The notes under the pieces: generated by a model
The model's database searches: none
What the model saw: only the letters and a program-made list of their open reading frames with translations
What the model was told of the DNA's origin: nothing
Made by a program: the position numbers and the translations under genes
Shown here: positions 2,016 to 14,814 of the stretch, one piece after another
How the letters are laid out: each line of letters begins with the position of its first letter
Numbering within the stretch: position 1 is the first letter of the stretch
Origin: Planctomycetota bacterium
Lineage (GTDB): Bacteria; Planctomycetota; Planctomycetia; Pirellulales; Pirellulaceae
DNA length: 32,462 nucleotides
Direction of reading: 5' to 3'
Assembly (NCBI GenBank): GCA_014381825.1
Contig: JACNKX010000124.1
Coordinates: 1 to 32,462 of the forward strand

Positions 2016-4682
2016 TTAGATGAAGTTCAGAACTGTCAACTGAAGTGTTTGCCCGATGAGCCGAAGCGTTGCCTCTAGATTCGCCTGACGAGCGGTGAGA
2101 TCTGAAATCGCTTTGACCAAGTCGGCATCGATTTCCTCCGATAGCGTTGCGCGCAGTTGAACATCCTCGTCTTGAACTCGCTCAGCCAGCACGTCGAGCG
2201 ATCGGGCACGCGAGCCAAGATCGGCCCGAGCGAACGTTAGGGTTCCGAAGTCATCATCTAGCATCTCGACAGCGCGACCAATTTCGACGATGTCAAAATC
2301 GACGAGTGCCGCACTCAGCCGCAACAGCGAGTTAAAAACTCCTTTCGTTTCGGTTGGATTTACATCCGCACCCTGCACTGCGTCGTAGGTTCCGCCGCTA
2401 AACGTAGCGACTGTACCGGTCGTAGTGATCACACCCGAGCCATTGTTCGCGGGATCTTGAATGGTCTCCAAGTCAGCGGTAAACGTACCTTGCGCGTTGA
2501 TCGCATCAATGATCGTATTGGCGGTGGTTTGCCCAGCGTCGATATCGACAAAGAGCCGACCGCCAGCAAACGTCGCGGTCGCAGACCCAGCGCTCAAGAT
2601 GTCGCGGTAAATCACCTGAACCGAGTTGAAACTCGGGCCGCCGACTGTCGCGGCGATGACAATCCCGGTGTTGCGGTCGTTGGGTTGTGGAAACGTGACG
2701 GTCGCTTCCGCGGGGGTCGACACCGACAGTGACGCCGTGTCTTGATTCCGCTCGATTAGACCGAGGTCCCATGCAGCGAAACTTTCGCCTCGCACAACGG
2801 TTAAGGATTGCGCCCCACTGTTGTTCTCGTCGGTGATCTGAATCCCGTTTCCAAACTGAGCCAGACGAGCCGTGATTGGCGAGGCACCACGATTGTCGGG
2901 ATGTGTGTTGATCAGGTCGATCACGTCACCAATCGTTTCGGCGGAGCTGACATCGATAGCAATATCGGGCGAACCGTTACGCCGAATCGTAAAGTCGATG
3001 CGCGGTCCGCCGCCACCAACGAAATTCGGCTCGGCTGCCAGCGAGTCGTTCCCGCCCGTAAGGTCGACGCCCTCACCAAAGTTGAGATCCGAAAGCAGCG
3101 TGTCGCGAGTTAATGTACGAATTCCAAGTTCGGTTGCCGTTGTCCCGCCATTTTCACCGATTGTGAAATCGGCTCCGCTCAACCTCGATCGAACTTCGAT
3201 GCCGCGTCCGTCCGGAGCAATTCGCGCGGAAACCGATGCCGCCGAGCCATTGAAAGCGTTGAGTAAGTCTTCGACGGTCTCGGCCGTCTCGAAGGTGATC
3301 GTGTGGGATTGACCGCCGTTGACGATCTGAACTCCAGAATCCCTATCTAGAAAGATCCCTGACCCTCCGTCGAAAGTCGCGGTGGCGGCCAGCTCAATCG
3401 GTCCCGCTCCTGAATTGGCGATATCGGTTTTTTCATCGAGCGAAGCACTAAACTGCCCCGTTGCGTTAAGTGCGCTCACGACCGTTTTAGCGGTAGTTAC
3501 ACCCGGGTTCGCGTTGATTTCGAGAACGCGATTTACTTCATCGAACGCAGCGATTGCGCCGTCGCCGGCAATGACGCCCGTCGAAGCGAATTGCACGAGA
3601 ACATCATTGATCTGCGAGCCGTTCTCAGTCGCCTCGATAAAGATGTTGTTGTCGAGTCCAGTTGACTCAAGTACGGCAGACGCACGCGAGCCAAGGATAT
3701 CGGTTAGCAGCGTGGTCAGTTCTAACTGCGGTGCCAGATCTTCGCCAAAAAGCTGCTTGACGCCGACACCGATCGGATTGAATATACCCAACTGATTCGC
3801 GGTTGTCCCGCCCGCTACTTCGCGGATCGTCAGATTCCCGGCTCCCGCATCATCGATATCAATTGTCAACGCGTTTTTCGTCAAACGAGCCGTCACTTGC
3901 CTACCGTCCGGTGGATTGCTCTCGATCAACCGGACAACGTCGCCGATCGTTTCGGCGGACGAAATGTTGATGGTTTTCGTCGAAGTACCGTCGGAGACTA
4001 AAAAGCTGCTCTTGGTAACGCCCACTCCACCACGGAGCGAGCTGAGTTTCGTATTGAGAGTTAAAGTCGGATCGAGGTCAACCGTTCCGCGCACCTCGGA
4101 TGAAATCGCACCGAATACTTCATCTCCCGTGACGTTGGCGTCAATGAGAAAATTTGCGTCGACTAAGCTACGCAAATCAATTTCGTTACCTTCATAGACA
4201 ACGTGCGTCCCTTGAAGCTCGAACGGTACCTGTGTCGTATTCGAGCCCGCGAATAAGTATCGACCTCGAAATTGCTGATTTCCGACGTCGACTAGCTGTT
4301 CGATCGCCCGATTCACTTCCTCGGTAATAACGCGTCGTTCACTCTCGCTATTCGTCGAGTCGACCGCAGACAATGCATTGGCGCGAATGCCGATGAGCAG
4401 CTCGGAGACACGTGTTAGTGCGTTGTCCGTCGCACCGATGTACGAGGACGTCGTACTGACATTCGTGACGGCTTGCTGCTTCTGTTCCAGAAGCCGTTGG
4501 ACGGTTATCGCGCGTCCGGCCGCCGTCGGATCGTCGCTGGGCGTTGTCAAACGAATGCCCGTGCTCAGTTGGTCCTGAAGACGAACGAGTTCCGTGCGAT
4601 CAAAGTTGAACTGCGACAGGAGACGAGCTCGCAAAAGCTGCTCGCTGACGCGGCTCGAAGCAACAGGATAGATCGCGGGCAT
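2016..4682 (-). CDS. flgL: Hook-filament junction protein FlgL, greatly enlarged
   Basis: Both ends are flagellin/FlgL-like: an N-terminal helical region at about residues 1-150, with LQDQLSTGIRLTTPSDDPTAAGRA and a RYLFAGSNT turn, and a C-terminal helix from about 780 to 888 that polymerises against it. Typical FlgL has roughly 300 residues; this one has 888. The additional 600 residues contain Flagellin_IN-like modules (A-E-T-I/V-x-D-V/L near residues 243, 467 and 581) and a second module type with TTAxTxxxAxNAxGxF near 396 and 719. These would form an enlarged surface domain on the filament base. The gene starts 16 bp after flgK. Length and modules are seen; surface exposure is inference from flagellin architecture. 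A flagellin is a less likely call because of the position after flgK. Confidence 0.9.
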   Translation of the reverse strand: MPAIYPVASSRVSEQLLRARLLSQFNFDRTELVRLQDQLSTGIRLTTPSDDPTAAGRAITVQRLLEQKQQAVTNVSTTSSYIGATDNALTRVSELLIGIRANALSAVDSTNSESERRVITEEVNRAIEQLVDVGNQQFRGRYLFAGSNTTQVPFELQGTHVVYEGNEIDLRSLVDANFLIDANVTGDEVFGAISSEVRGTVDLDPTLTLNTKLSSLRGGVGVTKSSFLVSDGTSTKTINISSAETIGDVVRLIESNPPDGRQVTARLTKNALTIDIDDAGAGNLTIREVAGGTTANQLGIFNPIGVGVKQLFGEDLAPQLELTTLLTDILGSRASAVLESTGLDNNIFIEATENGSQINDVLVQFASTGVIAGDGAIAAFDEVNRVLEINANPGVTTAKTVVSALNATGQFSASLDEKTDIANSGAGPIELAATATFDGGSGIFLDRDSGVQIVNGGQSHTITFETAETVEDLLNAFNGSAASVSARIAPDGRGIEVRSRLSGADFTIGENGGTTATELGIRTLTRDTLLSDLNFGEGVDLTGGNDSLAAEPNFVGGGGPRIDFTIRRNGSPDIAIDVSSAETIGDVIDLINTHPDNRGASPITARLAQFGNGIQITDENNSGAQSLTVVRGESFAAWDLGLIERNQDTASLSVSTPAEATVTFPQPNDRNTGIVIAATVGGPSFNSVQVIYRDILSAGSATATFAGGRLFVDIDAGQTTANTIIDAINAQGTFTADLETIQDPANNGSGVITTTGTVATFSGGTYDAVQGADVNPTETKGVFNSLLRLSAALVDFDIVEIGRAVEMLDDDFGTLTFARADLGSRARSLDVLAERVQDEDVQLRATLSEEIDADLVKAISDLTARQANLEATLRLIGQTLQLTVLNFI

Positions 4683-4698
4683 GGTCTACGTTAGTGGG

Positions 4699-6396
4699 TT
4701 AGAGGGTCAAGAGGACGCTAAGAAGTTCGCTGATCGTTGCTATTAAGCGCGCTGAGGCTTGATACGTTCGCTGATAGCCGATCATATTGATCGCTTCTTC
4801 GTCGATGCTCACGCCGGTCAAGCCGAGATATTGCCCCTCAAGTGTCTGTTGAAACACACGAAATCCCTCTCCGACTGCTTGAGTCACCGACGAAGCTTGC
4901 GTGACTTCGGCGACAAAATCTTCATACTGGTCAAAGAACGTCTGGTTGTTTCGTGATTCGAGAGGCGTGTCTCCAAATGATGCAAGCTGCAGTGCAATGT
5001 TGGTGTCTTCGCCGATTCCACCTCCACTGGCCGCAAATTTCGAAGGATCCGATCGTACTGTCTCACTGATCCCGATGTCACGACTGTTCGTTCCAGAGAA
5101 GAATGTGTTAATTCCTAACGCGGCCAACACGTGACTGGTATCACTTCCAAAGCCGAATTCGAGAATCGGCGATTCAGTTGAGATCGAGAGTACTCGCTGC
5201 GGACTCACATTAGATGCGAGCCCGTCGATCGCATCCAACGATTCGGCCAGATCCTCGAGCGTCGTATCCGTATTCAATCCGTTTAAACGCACGAATACGT
5301 CACTCGTTTCCGTCAGCCCTGTGCGCGTGTTGAATACTTTCACTTGGAACGATCCATTGACGGGAGTGAAAGGAAGTCCCGCTTGATCGAGCGCAACGGA
5401 TACGTCATCAACTGGAAACTCTTTCGTGATTTCCGTCAGTCCAGTCAGGCCCTGTCCGCTGGTGTAGATCTTGTTGAATTCAAAAGCTAAGGTCGCTGCC
5501 AACTCGTCCAGACTATCAATGAATCCACCAAGGATTTCGTCTCGCGCCGCATAGTTGCCGGCCAAACTGCCGGCCGCAGCCTCAAGTGGAGCATCGGTTG
5601 CGACAAGATTGATGGTCGCAATCGATAGTCCGCGATCGGAGCTAAACGAAGCTTCAACCTCTCGATACTCAGCTTCAAATACCAGAAAGTCACCGCCTGC
5701 GAAGAGGCTAACTGAACCATTTGCTTGCTCGGCGACGCGAACCTTCAGGATCTTAGACAGCTCGGATAACGCCAGCCCGCGCTGATCGCGTAATCCGCCC
5801 GCATCGCTACCTGAAGGCGAGCCACCTTCCGTTTGGACGATGTTGACGTTCAATTCAGCGACTTCGGCTAACAAGCGATTTATATCATTGGCAGCCGAAG
5901 CCACCTGCTTGTTGATATTAGAGCGAATATCACCCACGCGAGATTCTAAGCGACGAATATCGTCGGTGAGCGTTGCACCCTCGAGTACTGCCAAGTTGCG
6001 AACGGAGATATCCTCGGGTTGATTGAGGATGTCGTTGATCGCGTTGAAGAAATTTGACAGGGACGTACTTAAATCGGTTTCGCTCAACTCGCCGATCAGA
6101 GCCTCCAGCTGAATGTACGCTTGTTCCTGCGCTTCGCTGCTCGCCAAATCGCTAATCGCACCGCGCAATCGATCAGAGAGAAATTGATCTGCTTGCTGAA
6201 TGATCCCGTCGACTTGGACGCCAAGTCCGAGCGGGAGGTCTCCAATCAACTGAGTTGGCGCAGGCGTGAAGACAGGCCGTTGGCGGACGTAGCCAGGCGT
6301 GTTCGCATTGGCGATGTTGTTTCCCGTGACCTGGAGGCCAACCTGGGAAGCAAACAGCGCGTTGTTCGCGATCTGAAGAGATCCAAGAAGAGACAT
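4699..6396 (-). CDS. flgK: Flagellar hook-associated protein 1 FlgK
   Basis: The 565-residue protein begins with the rod/hook N-terminal motif (ALFASQVGLQVTGNNIANANTPGY, residues 13-36). It ends with the matching C-terminal motif (AINMIGYQRTYQASARLIATISELLSVLL). Both helices form the coiled-coil D0 core. The length is normal for FlgK. It forms the first ring of the hook-filament junction under FlgL. It lies between flgN and flgL; FlgN is the export chaperone of both products. The ribosome-binding site before the ATG is weak (GAG), so translation may depend on coupling within the message. There is no signal peptide, as expected for a substrate of the flagellar export gate. Confidence 0.95.
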   Translation of the reverse strand: MSLLGSLQIANNALFASQVGLQVTGNNIANANTPGYVRQRPVFTPAPTQLIGDLPLGLGVQVDGIIQQADQFLSDRLRGAISDLASSEAQEQAYIQLEALIGELSETDLSTSLSNFFNAINDILNQPEDISVRNLAVLEGATLTDDIRRLESRVGDIRSNINKQVASAANDINRLLAEVAELNVNIVQTEGGSPSGSDAGGLRDQRGLALSELSKILKVRVAEQANGSVSLFAGGDFLVFEAEYREVEASFSSDRGLSIATINLVATDAPLEAAAGSLAGNYAARDEILGGFIDSLDELAATLAFEFNKIYTSGQGLTGLTEITKEFPVDDVSVALDQAGLPFTPVNGSFQVKVFNTRTGLTETSDVFVRLNGLNTDTTLEDLAESLDAIDGLASNVSPQRVLSISTESPILEFGFGSDTSHVLAALGINTFFSGTNSRDIGISETVRSDPSKFAASGGGIGEDTNIALQLASFGDTPLESRNNQTFFDQYEDFVAEVTQASSVTQAVGEGFRVFQQTLEGQYLGLTGVSIDEEAINMIGYQRTYQASARLIATISELLSVLLTL

Positions 6397-6436
6397 ACTA
6401 ACACTCGGCGCGACTTCGTCAGTTCCGCAGCAGCGC

Positions 6437-6937
6437 CTAAACTTCCCTGTCTACTAGCGCCCCGCGCGAATCCGACGGCTCGTCTCTTGAATATGTCGGC
6501 TGCAAGTGCCCGCCAGTAGCAATAATCTCCAATAACTGTGACAGATGTAGGATGGTTCTTTGAGCTAGCACCCAGTTCGCGAGGCTTTGGTGCTGCAGTA
6601 ATCGCATTCTTGCCGAGGCGGCGGTCATCTGCTTGGTGACTTTTTTGCGATCGGCCTTCGCCAGCGTCGCGGCGATATTACCAAGGTTTTCTGCGGGTAC
6701 GCCCTGCTCATTGGCTATCGCTATCAAGTCTTCTCGCTGCTGGTGACACGATCGTAACCGGTCGCACAACGCCTCAGCGCGCGGATGAAGATCGATCATT
6801 TGTTGCATGTCATTGCTAGCCATGCTGTCGCGTTTTGCAGCGAGTACATCCAGCAACTCTGTCTGAACGCTGGACAACTCGTCCAACAATCCCGTGAGAT
6901 CTGCTTCCCAATCGTTTTGTTGCGTGTCAGCCACCAT
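6437..6937 (-). CDS. flgN: FlgN-family export chaperone for FlgK and FlgL
   Basis: The product is a small helical protein of 166 residues, with a long amphipathic helix (LTGLLDELSSVQTELLDVLAAKRDSMASND) followed by a second one and a variable tail. That matches FlgN-type chaperones in size, charge and helix pattern, although this family is poorly conserved in sequence. The position directly before flgK and flgL is the strongest argument. I prefer the ATG at 6937 because GGAAGGA stands ten bases upstream. An in-frame ATG at 6997, six bases after the flgJ stop codon, would add 20 residues but has no clear ribosome-binding site. Confidence 0.78.
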   Translation of the reverse strand: MVADTQQNDWEADLTGLLDELSSVQTELLDVLAAKRDSMASNDMQQMIDLHPRAEALCDRLRSCHQQREDLIAIANEQGVPAENLGNIAATLAKADRKKVTKQMTAASARMRLLQHQSLANWVLAQRTILHLSQLLEIIATGGHLQPTYSRDEPSDSRGALVDREV

Positions 6938-7003
6938 CGATCCAAAGTCCTTCCCTAAAGCAACGTGTTGCTCCCAGCCGGCCCGTGTTGCTCGCATTCC
7001 GCA

Positions 7004-7342
7004 TCACGCGCGTTTCAGCGAGTACAACTCAAATAGCGGATCGGTAAACTCGTCGGCCGCCGCTTCGGTCATGTGTTCGGAGAGAACTTGGTCGAGTTGG
7101 CCCTGAAACACTTCTTCAGTTCGTCCACCATGAAAGTAGGCTGGTTTATCGACTGTCTTCCGCATTGCGCTCAACATCTGTTGAAAGAAAGTCTGTCCGA
7201 CAAAACTGTCGAACGCTTCACGCAACTCACTTGGCTCCTCGGCGCTCTCCGGCGCGGCAGGTGGAACGAACTTGGGTGGGGCTGCGTGACCTGCGAGCCC
7301 GGAGAAAACGGTACTCGCTTGTGTACTAGTTGGGATATTCAT
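7004..7342 (-). CDS. flgJ: Rod-binding protein, FlgJ N-terminal domain only
   Basis: The 112-residue protein contains the rod-binding domain seen in the N-terminal half of enterobacterial FlgJ: LREAFDSFVGQTFFQQMLSAMRKTV, a glycine turn (YFHGGRTEEVFQGQLDQVLSEHM) and a C-terminal helix. The muramidase domain that FlgJ of Escherichia and Salmonella carries is absent. Many other phyla also have this short form and use a separate enzyme to open the cell wall. It probably acts as a rod-assembly scaffold in the periplasm. AAAGG precedes the ATG by eight bases. It begins 13 bp after flgI and directly precedes flgN. Confidence 0.85.
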   Translation of the reverse strand: MNIPTSTQASTVFSGLAGHAAPPKFVPPAAPESAEEPSELREAFDSFVGQTFFQQMLSAMRKTVDKPAYFHGGRTEEVFQGQLDQVLSEHMTEAAADEFTDPLFELYSLKRA

Positions 7343-7355
7343 CGTGATGCCTTTG

Positions 7356-8507
7356 TTACTGAACGATCAGTCGACCGTACAAGTCTCCGCTTCGTTCCAG
7401 CGATTTGATGATGTCCATAATGTCATCGGGACTGACTTTTAGAGAATTCAGTGCGGCAACCAGTGCCTTCAGACGCGTTGTGGAGGTTTCGGATTGGTCA
7501 ATTTCCACGATTGGGCCAACGGTCGGTTCGTCTCCGGTTTCGATGCTCAGATTGCGATGTGCTACCGCGACGCGTCCGACCATGACGTTGTCACCGATAA
7601 CAATAGTGCCGTTGCGTTCATCGATCACCACGCGAGCGGCATGCTTGGGTGGAACGATTTGTGTATCGAGAATACCCGCGATGAACTCGACTTGACTATC
7701 GCGGTAGATGTTTGGAACGCTTACTTCGACATTCACAGCGTCGATCGCTTTTGCGCGCGGCTTGTTATCGCTACTACCGCCGATGACGTTCTCGGAGACG
7801 CCATTCGATCGCGAACTACCGGATCCACCACGACTCGGCGAGTTCAATAGATCTTCGATTTCGTATGCCATTCCGAAGCTGGCGTGATTCCGGTCCAACA
7901 CGAGCGTAATTGAGTCGTCCTTCATATACGCGTTGTGAAAGTTCTCTTCCAAGCGACAACCATCATGAACTTTGGCGGATGTTGGTGGTCCAGTATTATC
8001 TAGGGTGAGCTGACCTTTCGCGTAGCCATAGATCCGTGGATTCCCAGGCCGGGGCCCGAGCAACGGAGTCATCAGCAGGTATCCGCCCTCGATGCTCTTC
8101 GCGCTAATCGCGTTTACAACACAGTTCAGCGTTTCGCCTTGCCGGGCACCTTCGGCCGGAATCGTTGCAGTGATAAACACCATCGCCACATTCTTCGCGT
8201 TCTTTAGCTCGTCGAGCGCAACTCCACCGGCCGCGTTTTGCCCCAGCGGGTTGCCCATCATCGCCATCATTCTCGACAGCGCTCGCGTTGTTGGGACTTC
8301 TCCGTCTCCGGTGCCTTTCAATCCGACAACGAGTCCCAGGCCGTGCAGCGTGTTTTCTTCTTGACCTTTGACTCGGCAGATATCTCGAATTCGGAGGTAC
8401 TGTCCGAAGCAGCTTTCGCCACAGGCGGACCAGCACAGTAGGACCGCAAGTCCCACACCGAGCGTTCGCAGTGGACGTGGCATCTGTGTAGAGGAGAACT
8501 TACGCAT
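7356..8507 (-). CDS. flgI: Flagellar P-ring protein FlgI
   Basis: A typical Sec signal peptide (about residues 1-35, ending near SCFGQ) is followed by the FlgI pattern IRDICRVKGQEENTLHGLGLVVGLKGTGDG. Later come ALVAALNSLKVSPDDIMDIIKSLERSGDLYGRLIV at the C-terminus and the conserved VVIDERNGTIVIGDNVMVG stretch. The mature protein forms the P-ring in the peptidoglycan around the rod. A P-ring and L-ring together imply a diderm envelope. I placed the start at the ATG at 8507, with GAAGG upstream; a GTG at 8522 in frame would add five residues. It lies 23 bp after flgH. Confidence 0.95.
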   Translation of the reverse strand: MRKFSSTQMPRPLRTLGVGLAVLLCWSACGESCFGQYLRIRDICRVKGQEENTLHGLGLVVGLKGTGDGEVPTTRALSRMMAMMGNPLGQNAAGGVALDELKNAKNVAMVFITATIPAEGARQGETLNCVVNAISAKSIEGGYLLMTPLLGPRPGNPRIYGYAKGQLTLDNTGPPTSAKVHDGCRLEENFHNAYMKDDSITLVLDRNHASFGMAYEIEDLLNSPSRGGSGSSRSNGVSENVIGGSSDNKPRAKAIDAVNVEVSVPNIYRDSQVEFIAGILDTQIVPPKHAARVVIDERNGTIVIGDNVMVGRVAVAHRNLSIETGDEPTVGPIVEIDQSETSTTRLKALVAALNSLKVSPDDIMDIIKSLERSGDLYGRLIVQ

Positions 8508-8530
8508 GGAATTGGCCTTCACGACGTGTC

Positions 8531-9232
8531 TTAGAACGGATGGAACTCATCAAGCCAGCGGACGAACCAACCTCGCTTGTAGCTGTCTCGGACGTGCCCG
8601 CGCTCCCGTTTATCAAGCTTCATGTTGACGATGTTTCTACTGAGGACAACGTTGTCAGGACCGACATCTTGGTGGCGGCAAATTCCGGCTAACGAGACCT
8701 CCCACATGTCGTCGTTGATCCGAATTTGTTTGTGTCCCTCTAGCACGAGATCGCCATTGGGGCGAATGTCCGCGACCGAGCAAGCAATATTTAACGTCAA
8801 AGATTCACGAGCCTGGACGTCGCCTTCAGCTCGGTAAAGTTGCTGAAGTTGTCCCGCAATTGTCTGGTCGCCGTCCGCCTGGGCATTCGGCTTGATTGCT
8901 TTCAGACCGATCAAGCTGATCCAATCTTGCAAGACGGCGTTGTAGGAAGCTGTCTTGCGTCGCTCGACGTCACCTTCCTGAGTCATGCTGGCGATTTCAT
9001 CCACGCGGATCGTGACCCGATCGTGGATCTGAATTCTTCGTGGCAAGGTTGGCGGAATATACGTCCAACTCCCGCCATCTAGCATGATCGGCGGCTGACG
9101 ATTCGTTGGAAGATCACGATCGAAGATGCTCGACGTTTGTGCTGCCACGGGTCCCGCAAACGCCAGGATGGCCAAGACCGCGGTAAGTTGAACGATAGGA
9201 TTTCCATCGTCTTGAAAACTGAAACGTGTCAT
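8531..9232 (-). CDS. flgH: Flagellar L-ring protein FlgH, without lipobox
   Basis: The 233-residue protein shows FlgH features: an export signal, then SIFDRDLPTNRQPPIML, a VTIRVDEIASMTQEGDVERRKTASYN segment and the C-terminal NGDLVLEGHKQIRINDDMWEVSLAGICRHQDV block. FlgH forms the L-ring in the outer membrane. In Proteobacteria it is a lipoprotein with a Cys at the cleavage site. Here the signal ends in FAGPVAAQTSS, an A-x-A type I site with no cysteine, so the mature protein should not be lipidated. Its ATG overlaps the flgA stop codon by one base (TAATG), showing tight coupling. Confidence 0.93.
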   Translation of the reverse strand: MTRFSFQDDGNPIVQLTAVLAILAFAGPVAAQTSSIFDRDLPTNRQPPIMLDGGSWTYIPPTLPRRIQIHDRVTIRVDEIASMTQEGDVERRKTASYNAVLQDWISLIGLKAIKPNAQADGDQTIAGQLQQLYRAEGDVQARESLTLNIACSVADIRPNGDLVLEGHKQIRINDDMWEVSLAGICRHQDVGPDNVVLSRNIVNMKLDKRERGHVRDSYKRGWFVRWLDEFHPF

Positions 9233-10065
9233 TATCTTTTCTCCGTTAACAAACTTGGAGATCGTGCCGCTGAGCGAGATGCGTCGGTGGCGATGACGCC
9301 GGTTGCATACACTTCGACTTGCCGCGAGCCAGTCACATGGGTCGAGTACTTCTCTCGATTCTCCAAAGATTGCACCACGATGATGTCACCCAATGAGCCG
9401 TCTTCCGTCGCCCTGGCCGTTGTCGTCACTTGAACGCCGGCTGCCCGAGCGCGAACTCGAATCACTTCGCCTCGTTTCACCAAGATCGGCTTGCGGAGTT
9501 GATTTAAACCGATCGGTTGCCCCGCTCGAATCGGCGTGAGGACTTCCATTCCCACGACCGCTCGTCTCTCCGTCGCGAGCTGAAATCGTCGCGTTTTTGG
9601 ATCGAGCGTTTGCAGTTCGACATCGGTATCACGAACGATGTCACCTCGATTCAAGGTGCGCCGCGCGACGACGACCATTTCAGCAGGTTGGTCTGTCTGC
9701 GTGAGCAATCCCGTGGGGACGACTTTGGACTTCTGTGGACGAGCATAAATTCGGGTCGTTCGCACGCCGGAAAAGGCGAGATCGTCGATGTCGATTCCGT
9801 GAAGCACAAGCAACTCGACCAGCTCACGGACATGCATCAGCTTCGAGCGATTTTGGGGCGGAGCAGGGAACAACTCGACCCGTTCGAGTTCTGCGCCGCG
9901 TTGCAAATCCTCCGACTTGACCTCGGCAACGTCGCCCAACAAGACCAGCGAGCCTTTGGCATGCGACTGTGGACGGAGTGTGACTTCAGCCGCATCCGCC
10001 GACCAACTGCCGGCCAGAATGGCGAAGAAGTAAATGGCGATCTTTGTTTGGAACGGTCTTGTCAT
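9232..10065 (-). CDS. flgA: P-ring assembly chaperone FlgA (SAF domain)
   Basis: This protein of about 277 residues has a signal peptide (ending near SADAAE). Its C-terminal half has an SAF-type fold: VVARRTLNRGDIVRDTDVEL, then VGMEVLTPIRAGQPIGLNQLRKPILVKRGEVIRVRAR, and the closing GSLGDIIVVQSLENREKYSTHV that is typical of FlgA. FlgA works in the periplasm and helps FlgI assemble into the P-ring. The ATG at 10065 gives a proper signal peptide. A TTG at 10083 in frame is possible, and neither has a good ribosome-binding site. It sits between flgG and flgH, and its stop codon overlaps the flgH start. Confidence 0.9.
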   Translation of the reverse strand: MTRPFQTKIAIYFFAILAGSWSADAAEVTLRPQSHAKGSLVLLGDVAEVKSEDLQRGAELERVELFPAPPQNRSKLMHVRELVELLVLHGIDIDDLAFSGVRTTRIYARPQKSKVVPTGLLTQTDQPAEMVVVARRTLNRGDIVRDTDVELQTLDPKTRRFQLATERRAVVGMEVLTPIRAGQPIGLNQLRKPILVKRGEVIRVRARAAGVQVTTTARATEDGSLGDIIVVQSLENREKYSTHVTGSRQVEVYATGVIATDASRSAARSPSLLTEKR

Positions 10066-10101
10066 CGATTCAATTCGTTTCAAGTTGGACTAGCCAGTGA
10101 G

Positions 10102-10908
10102 TTAGAAGCGGCGGAGATTCGAAATCAATTGCAATACTTGATCGCCCGCTTGCACGGCCTGCGAGTTCAGCTCGAACGAACGCTGTGTCGTGATCAAGTC
10201 GATCAGCTCTTGAACCGGTTCCACGTTGGAGGCCTCGAGGGATCCTTGTTGAAGAACGCCGAGCCCCGTACTCCCTGGATTGTCTGGCGTCGCGTCACCA
10301 GATGCATTAGTTGCTTGATACAGGTTCTCGCCGAGTTTCAGCAGCCCTTCGGGGTTAAGGAAGTTGTTGAGCTGAATCTGCCCCGCCGGGGTCGCCTGAT
10401 CCTGACCCGGCAATCGAACGAGAACATTTCCATCAGCCTGAATCGCAACGTCGAGAACGTTTGGCGGAATCGTGATCTGTGGTTGAACCACTCGACCGGC
10501 GGTCGCGGAGCCAAGTACGAGTTGTCCAGTGGAGTTGATCGAAAAATTTCCCGATCGTGTATAGAGGCTCGATCCAGATGCTGCGTCTTCAACTTCAAAG
10601 AATCCGCTGCCTTGGATTGCCACGTCGTAACGGTTCCCCGTCTGCTCGAAAGCACCTTGCTGAAAGTTAGTTTGAATGCTTGAAACGCGCGTACCAAGTC
10701 CGACTGATTTGCCGGTAGCAGCTTGACCCCCGCCAGCTGGATCGGCTCCGGGCATGGTTTCATGGCGGTAGAACAAGTCTTCGAAGTTCGCTCGTCCCTT
10801 CTTGAAGCCCGTTGTGTTAACGTTCGCTAGATTATTCGCGATTACGTCAAGCTTGGTTTCCATCGCCTGCATGCCGGTGGCGGCTGTGTAAAGTGTTTGA
10901 ACGCTCAT
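10102..10908 (-). CDS. flgG: Distal rod protein FlgG
   Basis: The 268-residue product starts MSVQTLYTAATGMQAMETKLDVIANNLANVNTTGFKKGRANFEDLFY, the hallmark of FlgG. It contains the central GNRYDVAIQGSGFFEV motif and ends EPVQELIDLITTQRSFELNSQAVQAGDQVLQ with the C-terminal rod helix. The length is close to the Escherichia protein (260). FlgG builds the distal rod that passes through the P- and L-rings encoded just downstream. AAAGGAA stands upstream of the ATG, and the gene begins 21 bp after flgF. Confidence 0.97.
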   Translation of the reverse strand: MSVQTLYTAATGMQAMETKLDVIANNLANVNTTGFKKGRANFEDLFYRHETMPGADPAGGGQAATGKSVGLGTRVSSIQTNFQQGAFEQTGNRYDVAIQGSGFFEVEDAASGSSLYTRSGNFSINSTGQLVLGSATAGRVVQPQITIPPNVLDVAIQADGNVLVRLPGQDQATPAGQIQLNNFLNPEGLLKLGENLYQATNASGDATPDNPGSTGLGVLQQGSLEASNVEPVQELIDLITTQRSFELNSQAVQAGDQVLQLISNLRRF

Positions 10909-10929
10909 CGTGAATTCCTTTGCAGTGGC

Positions 10930-11682
10930 TTATGACTGTCTCAAGAGACGGCTTACGAGCGAGCCGGCCATTTGATCTTGGCTTTGGATCATCCGAATGT
11001 TGGCTTCGTACGCACGCGATGTTTCGATCAACTCCATCATTTCGATCGCCGGTTTGACGCCAGACTGTTCGAGGTAGCCGCTCTTGACCTTTCGATTCGC
11101 TTCTGGAACGGGAGTCACATCCGCGAGCGGCGAGAACATGTTCTCGCCCGCTTTGACCAGATCGCCGAGCGACGTTGGTTTGACGAGTGCCAGCAACACC
11201 GCATCGCCGCCTTGTTCGATCCCGCCATCTTCGGAGAAGTTCCACGGCAATGTGGGATCGATCGCGACAGATCCCCCGTCGAGCGACATGACTGGGTAGC
11301 CTTGTTCGGATTGCAATTCGCCCGCCGTCGAGAAGTGGAAGTTGCCAGCACGCGTAAGAAGTGATTCTCCGTCCTTGTCGACGAGAAAGAATCCTTCCCC
11401 GTCGATCGCAAGATCGGTCTTGTTTCCTGTTTGCCGGACGCCCCCCGCGCTAAAGTCGGTAACGGTCTCGGAGAATTCCACGCCGCCCCCGATATCTTCG
11501 ATACCGCGCTGCCCGGCAGCAACCGTGCCTTGCTCGATAGCTTCCGCGTGTCTTGCCTGTAGAATCGCGATCTCGCGTTTGAAGCCTGGCGTGTCTGCGT
11601 TCGCTAAGTTATTGCTCAGAACCTGCAACCGCGTACTCTGCACGTCGGCACCGGCGGCTGATATGTACATCCCGTAAGACAT
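10930..11682 (-). CDS. flgF: Flagellar rod protein FlgF
   Basis: This is a FlgF/FlgG-class rod protein of 250 residues. It has the N-terminal LSNNLANADTPGFKREIAIL, the central GNKTDLAIDGEGFFLV and the C-terminal GVKPAIEMMELIETSRAYEANIRMIQSQDQ motifs. I place the start at the ATG at 11682, where the family N-terminus begins; the open frame continues to 11778 but those residues do not match. As the first gene before flgG it fits FlgF by order as well as length, although the FlgF/FlgG split is not absolute. It is the promoter-proximal gene of the flagellar block, with a sigma-54 promoter about 50 bp upstream. Confidence 0.92.
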   Translation of the reverse strand: MSYGMYISAAGADVQSTRLQVLSNNLANADTPGFKREIAILQARHAEAIEQGTVAAGQRGIEDIGGGVEFSETVTDFSAGGVRQTGNKTDLAIDGEGFFLVDKDGESLLTRAGNFHFSTAGELQSEQGYPVMSLDGGSVAIDPTLPWNFSEDGGIEQGGDAVLLALVKPTSLGDLVKAGENMFSPLADVTPVPEANRKVKSGYLEQSGVKPAIEMMELIETSRAYEANIRMIQSQDQMAGSLVSRLLRQS

Positions 11683-11732
11683 CGATGTTGCTCGGCAAGA
11701 AGTCCGCTCCCCTGCAGACGTTCGTTCCCATT

Positions 11733-11748
11733 TGCAACCGGTGTGCCA
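11733..11748 (-). promoter_or_regulatory. Sigma-54 (RpoN) promoter of the flagellar block
   Basis: On the minus strand the sequence reads TGGCAC, five bases, TTGCA, which matches the -24/-12 consensus at every conserved position, including GG and GC ten bases apart. Transcription would start near 11722, leaving about 40 bases before the flgF ATG at 11682. Genes from flgF to the PilZ gene lie on this strand, mostly with gaps under 45 bp, so this promoter may drive most or all of them. Sigma-54 control of rod and ring genes is well known in Vibrio and Pseudomonas. Use in this organism is inference from the sequence. Confidence 0.85.
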
Positions 11749-11835
11749 GTTCGCTCTTCTTTGCTTCGCTTGCGGCACGATCGAATGAAGAAGCTGTTAA
11801 AACAACGGCCGGCCGCGATCTAGCAGCTCCATCTT

Positions 11836-12443: not shown

Positions 12444-12788
12444 TCAATCCTCGAATCGTTTGTAGTATTCGCGAACGTGATCTTGTTGCTCTTTCGGGAG
12501 ACGCTGGTCGGCGAGTGGATCGGAGTCATTTTTGACCGCGCTCAAGATCTCTTGCTTGATACTCTCCTGACTCTGGCCAGCCTTGTTCGGACCGATAGCA
12601 TCTCCAACCCGAACGGCTTCGCCCGCCTTGGGATTACCGCGGACTTTCGATTCATAAACGCCCGTATCGGTTTCTTGCTCGGGGCGATAACCTTCACCTT
12701 GACCTTCACCCAGACCATTACCGAAACCGAACTGATCGCTGAATCCATTTCCCATCTGACCAAACTGGTCAGAACTTTGGCAGCCCTG
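12444..12788 (-). CDS. In-frame continuation of the coiled-coil gene after TGA
   Basis: After the TGA at 12789-12791 the same frame stays open for 114 codons: QGCQSSDQFGQMGNGF, a glycine-rich run, then RPEQETDTGVYESKVRG, a basic patch and ESIKQEILSAVKNDSDPLADQRLPKEQQDHVREYYKRF. The composition looks like a maintained protein end, not drift. From memory, planctomycete homologues of the preceding protein continue through this region uninterrupted with Cys at the stop position. An ATG at 12755 is in frame but has no ribosome-binding site, so separate translation is unlikely. The segment is therefore either reached by decoding UGA or is a newly orphaned tail. Confidence 0.6.
   Translation of the reverse strand, partial: QGCQSSDQFGQMGNGFSDQFGFGNGLGEGQGEGYRPEQETDTGVYESKVRGNPKAGEAVRVGDAIGPNKAGQSQESIKQEILSAVKNDSDPLADQRLPKEQQDHVREYYKRFED
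12755..12773 (-). promoter_or_regulatory. SECIS-like hairpin downstream of in-frame TGA
   Basis: On the minus strand, TCTGACCA (12773-12766) pairs perfectly with TGGTCAGA (12762-12755), leaving a GTT loop. The loop G lies 23 bases after the TGA at 12791-12789. Published descriptions of bacterial SECIS elements ask for a stem-loop whose apical loop begins about 16-37 bases after UGA, with a G in the first two loop positions and a loop of at least three bases; this element meets all of these. There is no T-run, so it is not a terminator. Function depends on selA, selB, selC and selD elsewhere in the genome, which cannot be seen here. Confidence 0.4.
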
Positions 12789-14105
12789 TCAGCCAGCGCC
12801 TGCACATTCGTCGCAGTTCATAGCGCTCTTGGCATCGCCAATCTCGTCCATCATTTCGTCCAATGATGCAAGCTGTTGCATCTCTGACTGCATGTCCTGG
12901 AGTTGATCGGAAAACTCGGAAAGCTGCGTTTGAGCTGATTCCATGTCGCCGTTCTGCATGGCCTCTGATGCTTGACCTAGCTTATCGGCCATTTGCTCCA
13001 TCTGCTGCATCTGTCTGTCTTGCTGTTGCAGATCATCCAGCTTTCGCTGCAGCTTGCCCGCCGCTTCGGTGTCGCCTTCATCCATTTTTTGCTGGATTTG
13101 ACGTTCTAAATCCGCCTTCGCTTCTCGTTGCGAGTTCACCATCTCTTGCATCTTCTGCTGCATTTGTTGGAGCTGCTGCGCGAGTTGCTTCTTCTCTTGC
13201 TCGCTTAAGTCGCCCTTCTCCATTTTTTCTTGCAGTTGTTTTAGTTGCTCAATCGCCTTGTCGAAGTTTCCATCCTTCATGGCGTTGGCAATCTTTTCAG
13301 CGGGGCCTCGCTCAATGTTCTTCAGGCCCTCGAACTGCTTCTGCATCTTGTCGGGATCACCGAGAGCTTTGCGACGCTGTTCCAATTCCTTCGCCAAATT
13401 GTTGATCTTGACGAGAGCCTTCTTGCGGTCGACATTTCCGTCCTTGGACATCTCGTCGAGTCCCATGTGGAGTTTCTTAAAGATCTGGTCAGCATCCTTC
13501 AGGCCGCTCTCTTCAACTCGCTTGCGTTTCTCAGCAAGACGATTCTTTAACTGCTGAGCCGAACGTTTGATCTGTTCACGAATCGCAGCACTGTCGCTTG
13601 ACGCAGCCGTAGCTTTGTCTTGCGCATCAGGAACCAGCACCAATGCAAAAGCGACTAGCGCCGGGAGCACCGGCAACAGGACTCGCGGAGTGATCGCGAT
13701 ACCAAACTTCTCGCGAACTTGGAGAGATTCGACACGCCGCGAGGCATCGCTCAGCAACGCCTGGCCCGCCTCCGATTCCAGCTCGTCGCTTCGCAGAGAA
13801 AGAACGCTGGAGACCCGTTCCTTAAGTCCGAATCGGCGATCGAGTTCGATAGCAGCGTCGAGTGCCTGTCGGCGGACGACGATTGTCCAGCCGATCGTAA
13901 AGACGATCGCTGCAGCAACGGAGCCAATTAACCAACTGGCGAACCAAGTTTGGCTATCGACGCTGATGATCCAGAGTTTAGGAATCGCGAGTCCGATGAC
14001 GGCGATCACCATGGCGACCAGCAGTGCCCAGGGGAGTACCCCCAAAAATTGTTGCATTACGAGCCGTCGACGAGCCGTTGCCACTTGGCGTCGAATCTCT
14101 TCCAT
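12789..14105 (-). CDS. Membrane-anchored coiled-coil protein, ends at in-frame TGA
   Basis: The first part has three membrane segments (about residues 19-41, 55-76 and 141-158). A very long Gln/Lys/Glu/Met-rich coiled coil follows at about 175-420, with repeated DGN(F/M)D-type and QLQQMQQKMQEM stretches. It ends C431DEC434AGAG and then TGA at codon 439. In the same frame QGC follows, so with Cys or selenocysteine at 439 the end would read CxxC-x4-[C/U]xxC, a zinc or thiol cluster. It resembles large planctomycete coiled-coil membrane proteins of unknown role. AAGGA precedes the ATG, and a perfect TATAAT stands 54 bases upstream of the start codon. A neighbouring DCC-family thiol protein is divergently transcribed. 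Confidence 0.8.
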   Translation of the reverse strand: MEEIRRQVATARRRLVMQQFLGVLPWALLVAMVIAVIGLAIPKLWIISVDSQTWFASWLIGSVAAAIVFTIGWTIVVRRQALDAAIELDRRFGLKERVSSVLSLRSDELESEAGQALLSDASRRVESLQVREKFGIAITPRVLLPVLPALVAFALVLVPDAQDKATAASSDSAAIREQIKRSAQQLKNRLAEKRKRVEESGLKDADQIFKKLHMGLDEMSKDGNVDRKKALVKINNLAKELEQRRKALGDPDKMQKQFEGLKNIERGPAEKIANAMKDGNFDKAIEQLKQLQEKMEKGDLSEQEKKQLAQQLQQMQQKMQEMVNSQREAKADLERQIQQKMDEGDTEAAGKLQRKLDDLQQQDRQMQQMEQMADKLGQASEAMQNGDMESAQTQLSEFSDQLQDMQSEMQQLASLDEMMDEIGDAKSAMNCDECAGAG

Positions 14106-14364: not shown

Positions 14365-14814
14365 ATGAAGACAAACCACGTACCTGAGCTGCCCGAAGTC
14401 AGTTTGCCCAACTTGGCGGATCGCCCCGAGGCCGATGTCGTCATTTTCGATGGCAACTGTGTCTTTTGTCGCGGTCAGGTAGAGCGGCTTTCACGTTGGG
14501 ATCGCGCGGGTCGATTGGCCTTTGTTTCCTTGCACGACCCGGTCGTCGCCGAGCGTTATCCAGACCTAAGTCATACTCAGATGATGGAGCAAATGTATCT
14601 CGTCGATCGAGCTGGAAACCGGCATGGAGGCGCAGCCGCATTTCGCTATTTAAGTCGCAAGATGCCAGGGCTTTGGTTGTTGGCTCCGCTGTTGCACCTG
14701 CCGTTCACACTTCCCGTCTGGCAGTGGTGCTACCGGCAGGTCGCAAAGAGACGCTACAAGATTGCGGGAAAGCAATCGTGTGACAGCAGCAGCTGCGAAG
14801 TACATTTCAAGTAG
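14365..14814 (+). CDS. DCC-family thiol-disulfide oxidoreductase-like protein (DUF393)
   Basis: The 149-residue protein carries the family motif VIFDGNCVFC at residues 26-35, with C32xxC35, followed by W45D46 and the later GGAAAFRYLSRKMPGLWLLAPLLHLP block with a hydrophobic segment. It ends in a Cys-containing tail (CDSSSC). DCC proteins have a thioredoxin-like fold; the reaction of most members is not established. It probably sits in the cytosol or on the membrane face through the hydrophobic helix. The ATG has only a distant GGAG upstream. It is transcribed divergently from the coiled-coil gene and converges on the aminotransferase gene with a 31-bp gap. Confidence 0.88.
   Translation: MKTNHVPELPEVSLPNLADRPEADVVIFDGNCVFCRGQVERLSRWDRAGRLAFVSLHDPVVAERYPDLSHTQMMEQMYLVDRAGNRHGGAAAFRYLSRKMPGLWLLAPLLHLPFTLPVWQWCYRQVAKRRYKIAGKQSCDSSSCEVHFK

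What the first reader, a model, noticed from the sequence alone, without database searches (positions are those of the whole stretch)
12444..14105. In-frame TGA at a cysteine position with a SECIS-like hairpin: possible new selenoprotein
The coiled-coil membrane protein stops at TGA (12789-12791) right after CDECAGAG. The same frame continues 114 codons with intact-looking sequence starting QGC. With Cys or Sec at the stop, the end reads CxxC-x4-[C/U]xxC, and UxxC is a standard selenoprotein redox motif. A perfect 8-bp stem with a GTT loop begins 15 bases after the TGA, and its loop G lies at 23 bases, inside the published bacterial SECIS limits (about 16-37). My rough estimate for such a perfect stem by chance in this place is below 1 percent. 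From memory, planctomycete homologues have Cys here. The alternative is a single C-to-A or T-to-A change that truncated the protein. No selenoprotein of this type is known to me.
Basis: partly seen in the sequence, partly recalled or inferred. Interest (0 to 1): 0.75.

Follow-up and report, generated by a model that had tools for sequence, protein, structure and literature searches.

The report
New planctomycete membrane selenoprotein, DUF4175-like
A bacterial membrane protein appears to use the stop codon UGA to insert the rare amino acid selenocysteine at a spot where many of its relatives have cysteine, which would add a previously unlisted family to the known selenium-containing proteins.

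Summary
The 438-codon ORF at 12789-14105 (-) continues in frame through TGA 12789-12791 for 114 more codons. The TGA stands at the third Cys of a CxxCxGxG[C/U]xxC motif. Three other genomes (84, 84, 69% identity) keep the same TGA and downstream frame, although synonymous sites are close to saturated on both sides. Codons just after the TGA are among the most synonymously constrained of the gene; they encode an 8-bp stem with a GUU loop, 23 nt after the UGA, that meets the published bacterial SECIS rules. The host has tRNA-Sec, SelA, SelB and SelD, and SelD carries its own in-frame TGA. A distant homologue (41%, another family of the order) has TGA at exactly the same column; a third lineage has two TGAs in the motif. 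Of 92 homologues 44 have four Cys, 42 lack the full motif, 6 carry TGA; on the tree the Sec state needs three changes. The protein is a three-TM coiled-coil protein, distantly DUF4175-like. A 2026 table of 119 prokaryotic selenoprotein families does not list it. Sec insertion is near certain on comparative evidence; the site's role (redox or metal) is inferred. No experiment was possible.

The parts
12444..14105 (-). Whole gene read through the UGA: 553 residues (Sec at 439) plus terminal TGA stop
12789..14105 (-). Part before and including the recoded UGA: 438 codons with three predicted TM helices, coiled coil, CDECAGAG, then TGA
12789..12791 (-). In-frame TGA, codon 439, predicted selenocysteine
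   Evidence: same in window, G001, G002, G018; same column in G349
12780..12815 (-). Motif CDECAGAG-U-QGC (CxxCxGxG[C/U]xxC)
   Evidence: all 47 motif-bearing sequences listed fit CxxCxGxG[C/U]xxC
12755..12773 (-). SECIS-like hairpin, 8-bp stem, GUU loop (loop G at 12765)
   Evidence: rules from PMC13188914
12447..12788 (-). 114 codons after the UGA: Gly/Gln-rich linker and conserved C-terminal segment, under purifying selection
12444..12446 (-). Terminal TGA used as an ordinary stop
   Evidence: TGA also in G001 and G002, TAA in G018
13983..14039 (-). Predicted TM helix 1 (residues 23-41)
   Evidence: hydropathy
13875..13931 (-). Predicted TM helix 2 (residues 59-77)
   Evidence: hydropathy
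13626..13682 (-). Predicted TM helix 3 (residues 142-160)
   Evidence: hydropathy
14365..14814 (+). Divergent neighbour: DCC1-like thiol-disulfide oxidoreductase (PF04134); frequent neighbour, functional link unproven

Best explanation
The gene is a selenoprotein gene. UGA codon 439 is decoded as selenocysteine by the host's SelA/SelB/SelC/SelD system, directed by a bacterial SECIS hairpin just downstream, giving a 553-residue protein. The protein has three N-terminal TM helices, a long helical coiled coil, then a segment with CxxCxGxG-U-xxC and a conserved C-terminal piece. With a basic N-terminus inside and three TM helices, the coiled coil and the Sec site most likely face the periplasm (inference). 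The likeliest role of the site is redox: Sec and a neighbouring Cys form a reversible selenenylsulfide or attack an oxidised substrate, so that the membrane coiled coil acts as a thiol/selenol switch or reductase arm. Shown by computation: the conserved recoded frame, the hairpin, the machinery, recurrence at the same column. Inferred: topology and redox role. The confidence given is for the Sec reading; for the redox role I would give about 0.55.
For: TGA shared by the window, G001, G002 and G018. Across the six pairs pS is 0.63-0.79 before the TGA and 0.60-0.80 beyond 20 codons after it; pN there is 0.036-0.15. The 10-codon window +4..+13 is second lowest of 527 in synonymous difference (0.08, against means of 0.51 before and 0.49 after), and the 12 lowest 10-codon windows all lie within 24 codons after the TGA. 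One stem pair is A-U in two genomes and G-C in two. The hairpin meets the four rules quoted in PMC13188914. tRNA-Sec at 67 bits, SelB with SelA beside it on C59, SelD carrying its own TGA and a hairpin with loop GGUCG. G349: TGA at the same column, tRNA-Sec at 74.8 bits. G155: two TGAs, with tRNA-Sec, SelB, SelD and SelA. Three changes of Sec state on the tree, forced by starred branches.
Against: No experiment. Covariation alone is not significant: 75 of 500 shuffles reach three of the five measures and 406 of 500 the other two, and the outermost pair is broken in two of four (the slid controls are all lower). Two of 42 Cys homologues reach -7.5 kcal/mol or better by the same hairpin score (L195, L201). 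In G349 the contiguous-stem score is not unusual (1132 of 2000 shuffles); its hairpin is stable only with one bulge. For G155, 81 and 34 of 2000 shuffles. The motif is dispensable in the family: 42 of 92 homologues lack it. The Sec region is modelled with pLDDT under 50, so there is no structural support for a redox site. The DCC1-like neighbour is commoner beside loci without the full motif (31 of 38) than beside four-Cys ones (11 of 36), so it is poor evidence for a redox partner of this site. A SelA match above cut-off also appears in G020 (273.7 bits), which has no tRNA-Sec match, so SelA alone is not diagnostic.
Confidence: 0.94

Rival explanations
1. The UGA is a true stop: a single Cys-to-stop change truncated the protein and the rest is decaying.
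For: A standard-code ORF ends here. The motif is dispensable in the family.
Against: Same TGA and intact constrained frame in four genomes with nearly saturated synonymous sites; TGA at the same column in G349; full Sec machinery.
Confidence: 0.01
2. The UGA is passed by non-Sec means (ordinary readthrough, another amino acid), or the downstream part is made by re-initiation as a separate protein.
For: A 103-codon ATG ORF lies downstream in the same frame (12444-12755), and similar ones in L040 and L041.
Against: Neither explains TGA at the Cys column in separate lineages that all have tRNA-Sec, nor the SECIS-like constraint. The downstream ATG is at codon +12 in the window and G018 but +14 in G001 and G002. 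TGA also ends this gene in three of four genomes, so there is no general reassignment.
Confidence: 0.04
3. Sec is inserted, but the four-ligand motif binds a metal such as zinc, with Sec as one ligand; the role is structural or metal-sensing, not redox.
For: CxxCxGxG recalls the DnaJ zinc-binding repeat (recalled, not from a call). The motif has fixed spacing. The 2026 review lists a Sec-bearing FmdB-family protein with UxxU and says that in some families Sec may be a metal ligand.
Against: The same review expects most uncharacterised selenoproteins to be redox proteins. Some relatives keep the first CxxC alone, as L018, L025 and L055, which does not look like one indivisible four-ligand site.
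Confidence: 0.35
4. Sec is inserted and the UGA also serves as a selenium gauge: with little selenium the cell makes the 438-residue membrane coiled coil without its tail, with enough selenium the full protein.
For: The UGA comes after a complete TM plus coiled-coil part. UGA decoding competes with termination in known systems (recalled).
Against: The same could be said of any selenoprotein gene; no direct evidence here.
Confidence: 0.1

Closest known systems
Prokaryotic selenoproteins with UxxC motif (119 families or subfamilies in PMC13188914 Table 1)
   Same: UGA decoded with a downstream bacterial SECIS; Sec/Cys exchange at the same column; UxxC; host with SelA, SelB, SelC, SelD
   Different: None listed is described as a three-TM coiled-coil protein of the DUF4175 type with CxxCxGxGUxxC
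FmdB-family putative regulatory protein (TIGR02605), listed with UxxU
   Same: Sec within paired Cys motifs that could bind zinc
   Different: Recalled as a small soluble zinc-ribbon protein; listed with two Sec. No direct comparison was made; the window protein has no NCBIfam match to it
DUF4175 (PF13779)
   Same: Two of nine homologues scanned, L026 and L021, match its N-terminal part weakly (E 3.8e-5 and 0.0028)
   Different: Below the curated cut-off in both, and the window protein shows no match up to E 1
Selenoproteins described from planctomycetes P1 and P2 (PMC4807772)
   Same: Planctomycetes with a full Sec system
   Different: Passages seen name formate dehydrogenase alpha and formylmethanofuran dehydrogenase beta subunits; their Table S9 was not readable here, so overlap cannot be fully excluded

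Membership tests
Bacterial selenoprotein (UGA-Sec) | In-frame UGA with conserved coding sequence on both sides | tested here: met
   pN 0.036-0.15 beyond 20 codons after the TGA with pS 0.60-0.80, in all six pairs of four genomes
Bacterial selenoprotein (UGA-Sec) | UGA aligned with Cys in homologues | tested here: met
   third Cys of CxxCx4CxxC in 44 of 92 homologues
Bacterial selenoprotein (UGA-Sec) | UGA-containing homologues in other organisms | tested here: met
   G001, G002, G018 and G349 at the same column, G155 with two UGAs:
Bacterial selenoprotein (UGA-Sec) | bSECIS: loop 3-9 nt with G in first two positions, stem 4-16 bp, 16-37 nt from UGA, MFE at most -7.5 | tested here: met
   -10.2 (window), -10.4, -8.3, -12.3 kcal/mol, spacing 23 nt. 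G349 reaches the energy only with a bulged stem
Bacterial selenoprotein (UGA-Sec) | Host has tRNA-Sec, SelA, SelB, SelD | tested here: met
   G000:
Bacterial selenoprotein (UGA-Sec) | Selenium present in the protein | not testable with these tools
   needs 75Se labelling or mass spectrometry
DUF4175 (PF13779) | Pfam match above curated cut-off | tested here: not met
   best homologue L026 22.3 bits against 27.3; window protein none
Zinc-binding site of the DnaJ type | Four ligands binding zinc in a folded domain | tested here: inconclusive
   motif spacing fixed, but the region has pLDDT under 50 in a model from four sequences

The most novel reading that the evidence does not exclude
Selenocysteine was recruited independently at least three times at one site of the same planctomycete membrane coiled-coil family. 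In one of these lineages (G155) the motif holds two Sec residues served by a single SECIS hairpin lying 36 and 18 nt after the two UGAs. The site would then be a strongly selected periplasmic redox (or metal) switch in a protein class without a recognised thioredoxin-like domain.
Probability: 0.4. Interest if true: 0.72.

Novelty: new member of a known kind. Interest (0 to 1): 0.62.

Why it matters
It would add a family to the 119 prokaryotic selenoprotein families or subfamilies listed in a 2026 review, in a kind of protein that one would not have looked at: a three-TM coiled-coil protein with its Sec in what looks like a flexible linker. Sec/Cys exchange is a recognised pointer to functional cysteines (recalled), so it gives a handle on an uncharacterised planctomycete family. 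Standard-code ORF calling splits the gene in two, as seen in the window, L040 and L041. The recurrence of Sec at one column makes it a testable case of convergent Sec gain or repeated loss.

Tried and rejected
Structure: the only model, from a four-sequence alignment with TGA read as Cys, has mean pLDDT 51.7, and the Sec region (428-489) lies below 50; I took from it only helical content and ran no fold search. A sequence search of solved structures gave five matches with E 0.17-0.96. Rfam found nothing at the hairpin up to E 5. No plasmid record has the protein; the phage and E. coli collections were not searched.

Pattern search CxxCxGxG-TGA-xxC over 396 genomes of the order (38 with a match) and 397 of the class (41 with a match): apart from the window, the one homologue found was G349. 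Of 42 hit loci tested together only the window's own was homologous; of six fetched by place, two of them also among the 42, only G349 was. Several hits were never fetched, so further cases may be missed. The reversed-pattern control also gave hits (not totalled), so most hits look like chance. Both sets were drawn evenly from larger groups and share members.

Coverage: in the family sample some matching genomes hold only fragments that do not reach the motif.

DCC1-like neighbour as redox partner: found, always upstream and divergent, in 48 of 83 loci with 900 nt or more of upstream sequence; 14 of 97 loci were left out as too short. By motif state: 31 of 38 without the full motif, 11 of 36 four-Cys, 4 of 5 Sec (13 of 92 left out). 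So I do not rest the mechanism on it. By eye it has no signal peptide, so it is probably on the other side of the membrane.

Rows dropped: one of 93 homologues was left out of the tree. One search used a cruder ORF picker and counted the motif in 47 of 97 loci (5 with TGA, 42 with Cys); one search classed 92 rows as 44 Cys, 6 TGA-bearing (G155 does not fit the strict spacing) and 42 without.

Full report
On the minus strand the ORF starting at 14105 meets TGA at 12789-12791 after CDECAGAG and continues in the same frame for 114 codons to a second TGA at 12444-12446. The hairpin UCUGACCA-GUU-UGGUCAGA lies at 12755-12773, starting 15 nt after the TGA, with 23 nt between the TGA and its loop G.

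Homologues. Among 60 genomes (own, same genus, family, order) 49 match, own included, and G001, G002 and G018 each have one internal TGA besides the window. In the family sample 204 of 241 genomes match. With the genomes not listed there re-searched (60 of 80 match, G155 included), the only further TGA-bearing member seen is G155, with two TGAs (CEDCEGG-U-QGGDG-U-QGQ); some matches are fragments that do not reach the motif. In another family of the order G349 has TGA at exactly the window's column, CKQCGGFG-U-QAC. Of 25 matching genomes among 119 searched there it is the only one with an internal TGA; its nearest relative G525 (66%) has Cys.

Selection. In the four close genomes TGA is invariant. 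Synonymous difference pS is 0.63-0.79 before the TGA and 0.60-0.80 beyond 20 codons after it, while pN there is 0.036-0.15. A dead tail would not look like this. In the first 20 codons after the TGA pS falls to 0.15-0.38. Among 10-codon windows +4..+13 ranks second lowest of 527 at 0.08, against a mean of about 0.5 elsewhere, and the 12 lowest all start within 14 codons after the TGA. This is what an overlapping RNA element predicts. In the Cys homologues aligned the same stretch varies in length and sequence.

SECIS. The rules given in PMC13188914 (passages of section 5 seen) are: loop 3-9 nt, stem 4-16 bp, G in the first two loop positions, often followed by G or U, spacing 16-37 nt, MFE at most -7.5. 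The window, G001, G002 and G018 score -10.2, -10.4, -8.3 and -12.3 kcal/mol with 23 nt spacing. One pair is A-U in two and G-C in two genomes, and seven of eight pairs form in all four; by itself this covariation is not significant (75 of 500 shuffles on three measures, 406 of 500 on two). In G155 one hairpin with loop GGUC lies 18 nt after the second and 36 nt after the first TGA. In G349 the hairpin needs a bulge to be stable. Two of 42 Cys homologues also reach -7.5. As a positive control, SelD of the same genome carries an in-frame TGA followed by a hairpin with loop GGUCG.

Machinery. G000 has tRNA-Sec at C119:16524-16619 (67 bits), SelB at C59:15023-16918, SelA at C59:13586-14944 and SelD with TGA at C135:32266-33192. 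G001, G002, G018 and G155 also have tRNA-Sec, SelB, SelD and SelA above cut-off; the SelD matches of G002 and G155 are long forms without TGA. SelA alone is not diagnostic: G020, without a tRNA-Sec match, also passes its cut-off narrowly. G349 has tRNA-Sec; its SelB was not searched. In the family sample 116 of 241 genomes have tRNA-Sec and 113 of 241 SelB above cut-off.

Evolution. On a tree of 92 homologues built from about the first 400 residues, the six TGA-bearing sequences need three changes, and starred branches force three. The window, G001, G002 and G018 form one supported clade whose sisters (L043, L044) lack the motif. G349 sits among Cys forms. G155 sits in a clade that otherwise lacks the full motif. 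Three gains is the simplest reading; an older gain with losses is not excluded.

What the protein is. Three hydrophobic helices at 23-41, 59-77 and 142-160, a long helical stretch, then the motif and a conserved C-terminus. No Pfam or NCBIfam family matches the window protein above cut-off. Two of nine homologues scanned match the N-terminal part of DUF4175 weakly, so I call it DUF4175-like, not DUF4175.

Mechanism. Shown by computation: a recoded UGA at a Cys column, a SECIS-like constrained hairpin, a Sec-decoding host, recurrence. Inferred: a basic N-terminus inside and three TM helices put the coiled coil and Sec site in the periplasm; the site works as a redox-active CxxC plus UxxC pair. 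A metal site is the main rival (0.35). The upstream divergent DCC1-like thiol-disulfide oxidoreductase is a tempting partner but does not follow the motif.

Novelty. Table 1 of PMC13188914 (119 families or subfamilies; section 7 parts 1 and 2 of 3 read) lists nothing like it. In PMC12013277, PMC4807772, PMC1242214, PMC1794560 and PMC1088965 I saw only passages found by search terms, and none mentions it. Literature searches; only open-licence PMC papers are held, and supplementary tables could not be read. The decoding mechanism is the known one, so this is a new member of a known kind.

Noticed in passing
L060 (G155:C233), codons 454 and 460 of L060:4904-6619: Homologue with two in-frame TGAs six codons apart and one hairpin at SECIS-like spacing from both; a possible double-Sec variant with a shared SECIS.
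   Followed up: partly
window 14365-14814: DCC1-like thiol-disulfide oxidoreductase, divergent neighbour in 48 of 83 loci, but commoner beside homologues without the full Cys motif.
   Followed up: partly
G000:C135:32266-33192 and G000:C45:42491-43399: The genome has two SelD matches above cut-off: one with an in-frame TGA, one in a 741-codon open frame without it.
   Followed up: no
L195 (G525): The closest Cys relative of the TGA-bearing G349 gene has the strongest SECIS-like hairpin of the 42 Cys homologues scored (-15.8 kcal/mol): a possible remnant of a recent Sec-to-Cys change, or chance in GC-rich sequence.
   Followed up: no
G029, G062, G225, G011, G262; G349, G307: These relatives have a second, weaker tRNA-Sec-like match (47-59 bits; G011 has two).
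   Followed up: no
window 2016-11778, minus strand: Flagellar genes: flagellin-like, FlgK, FlgI, a FlgA-like P-ring chaperone and two FlgE/F/G rod or hook proteins.
   Followed up: no
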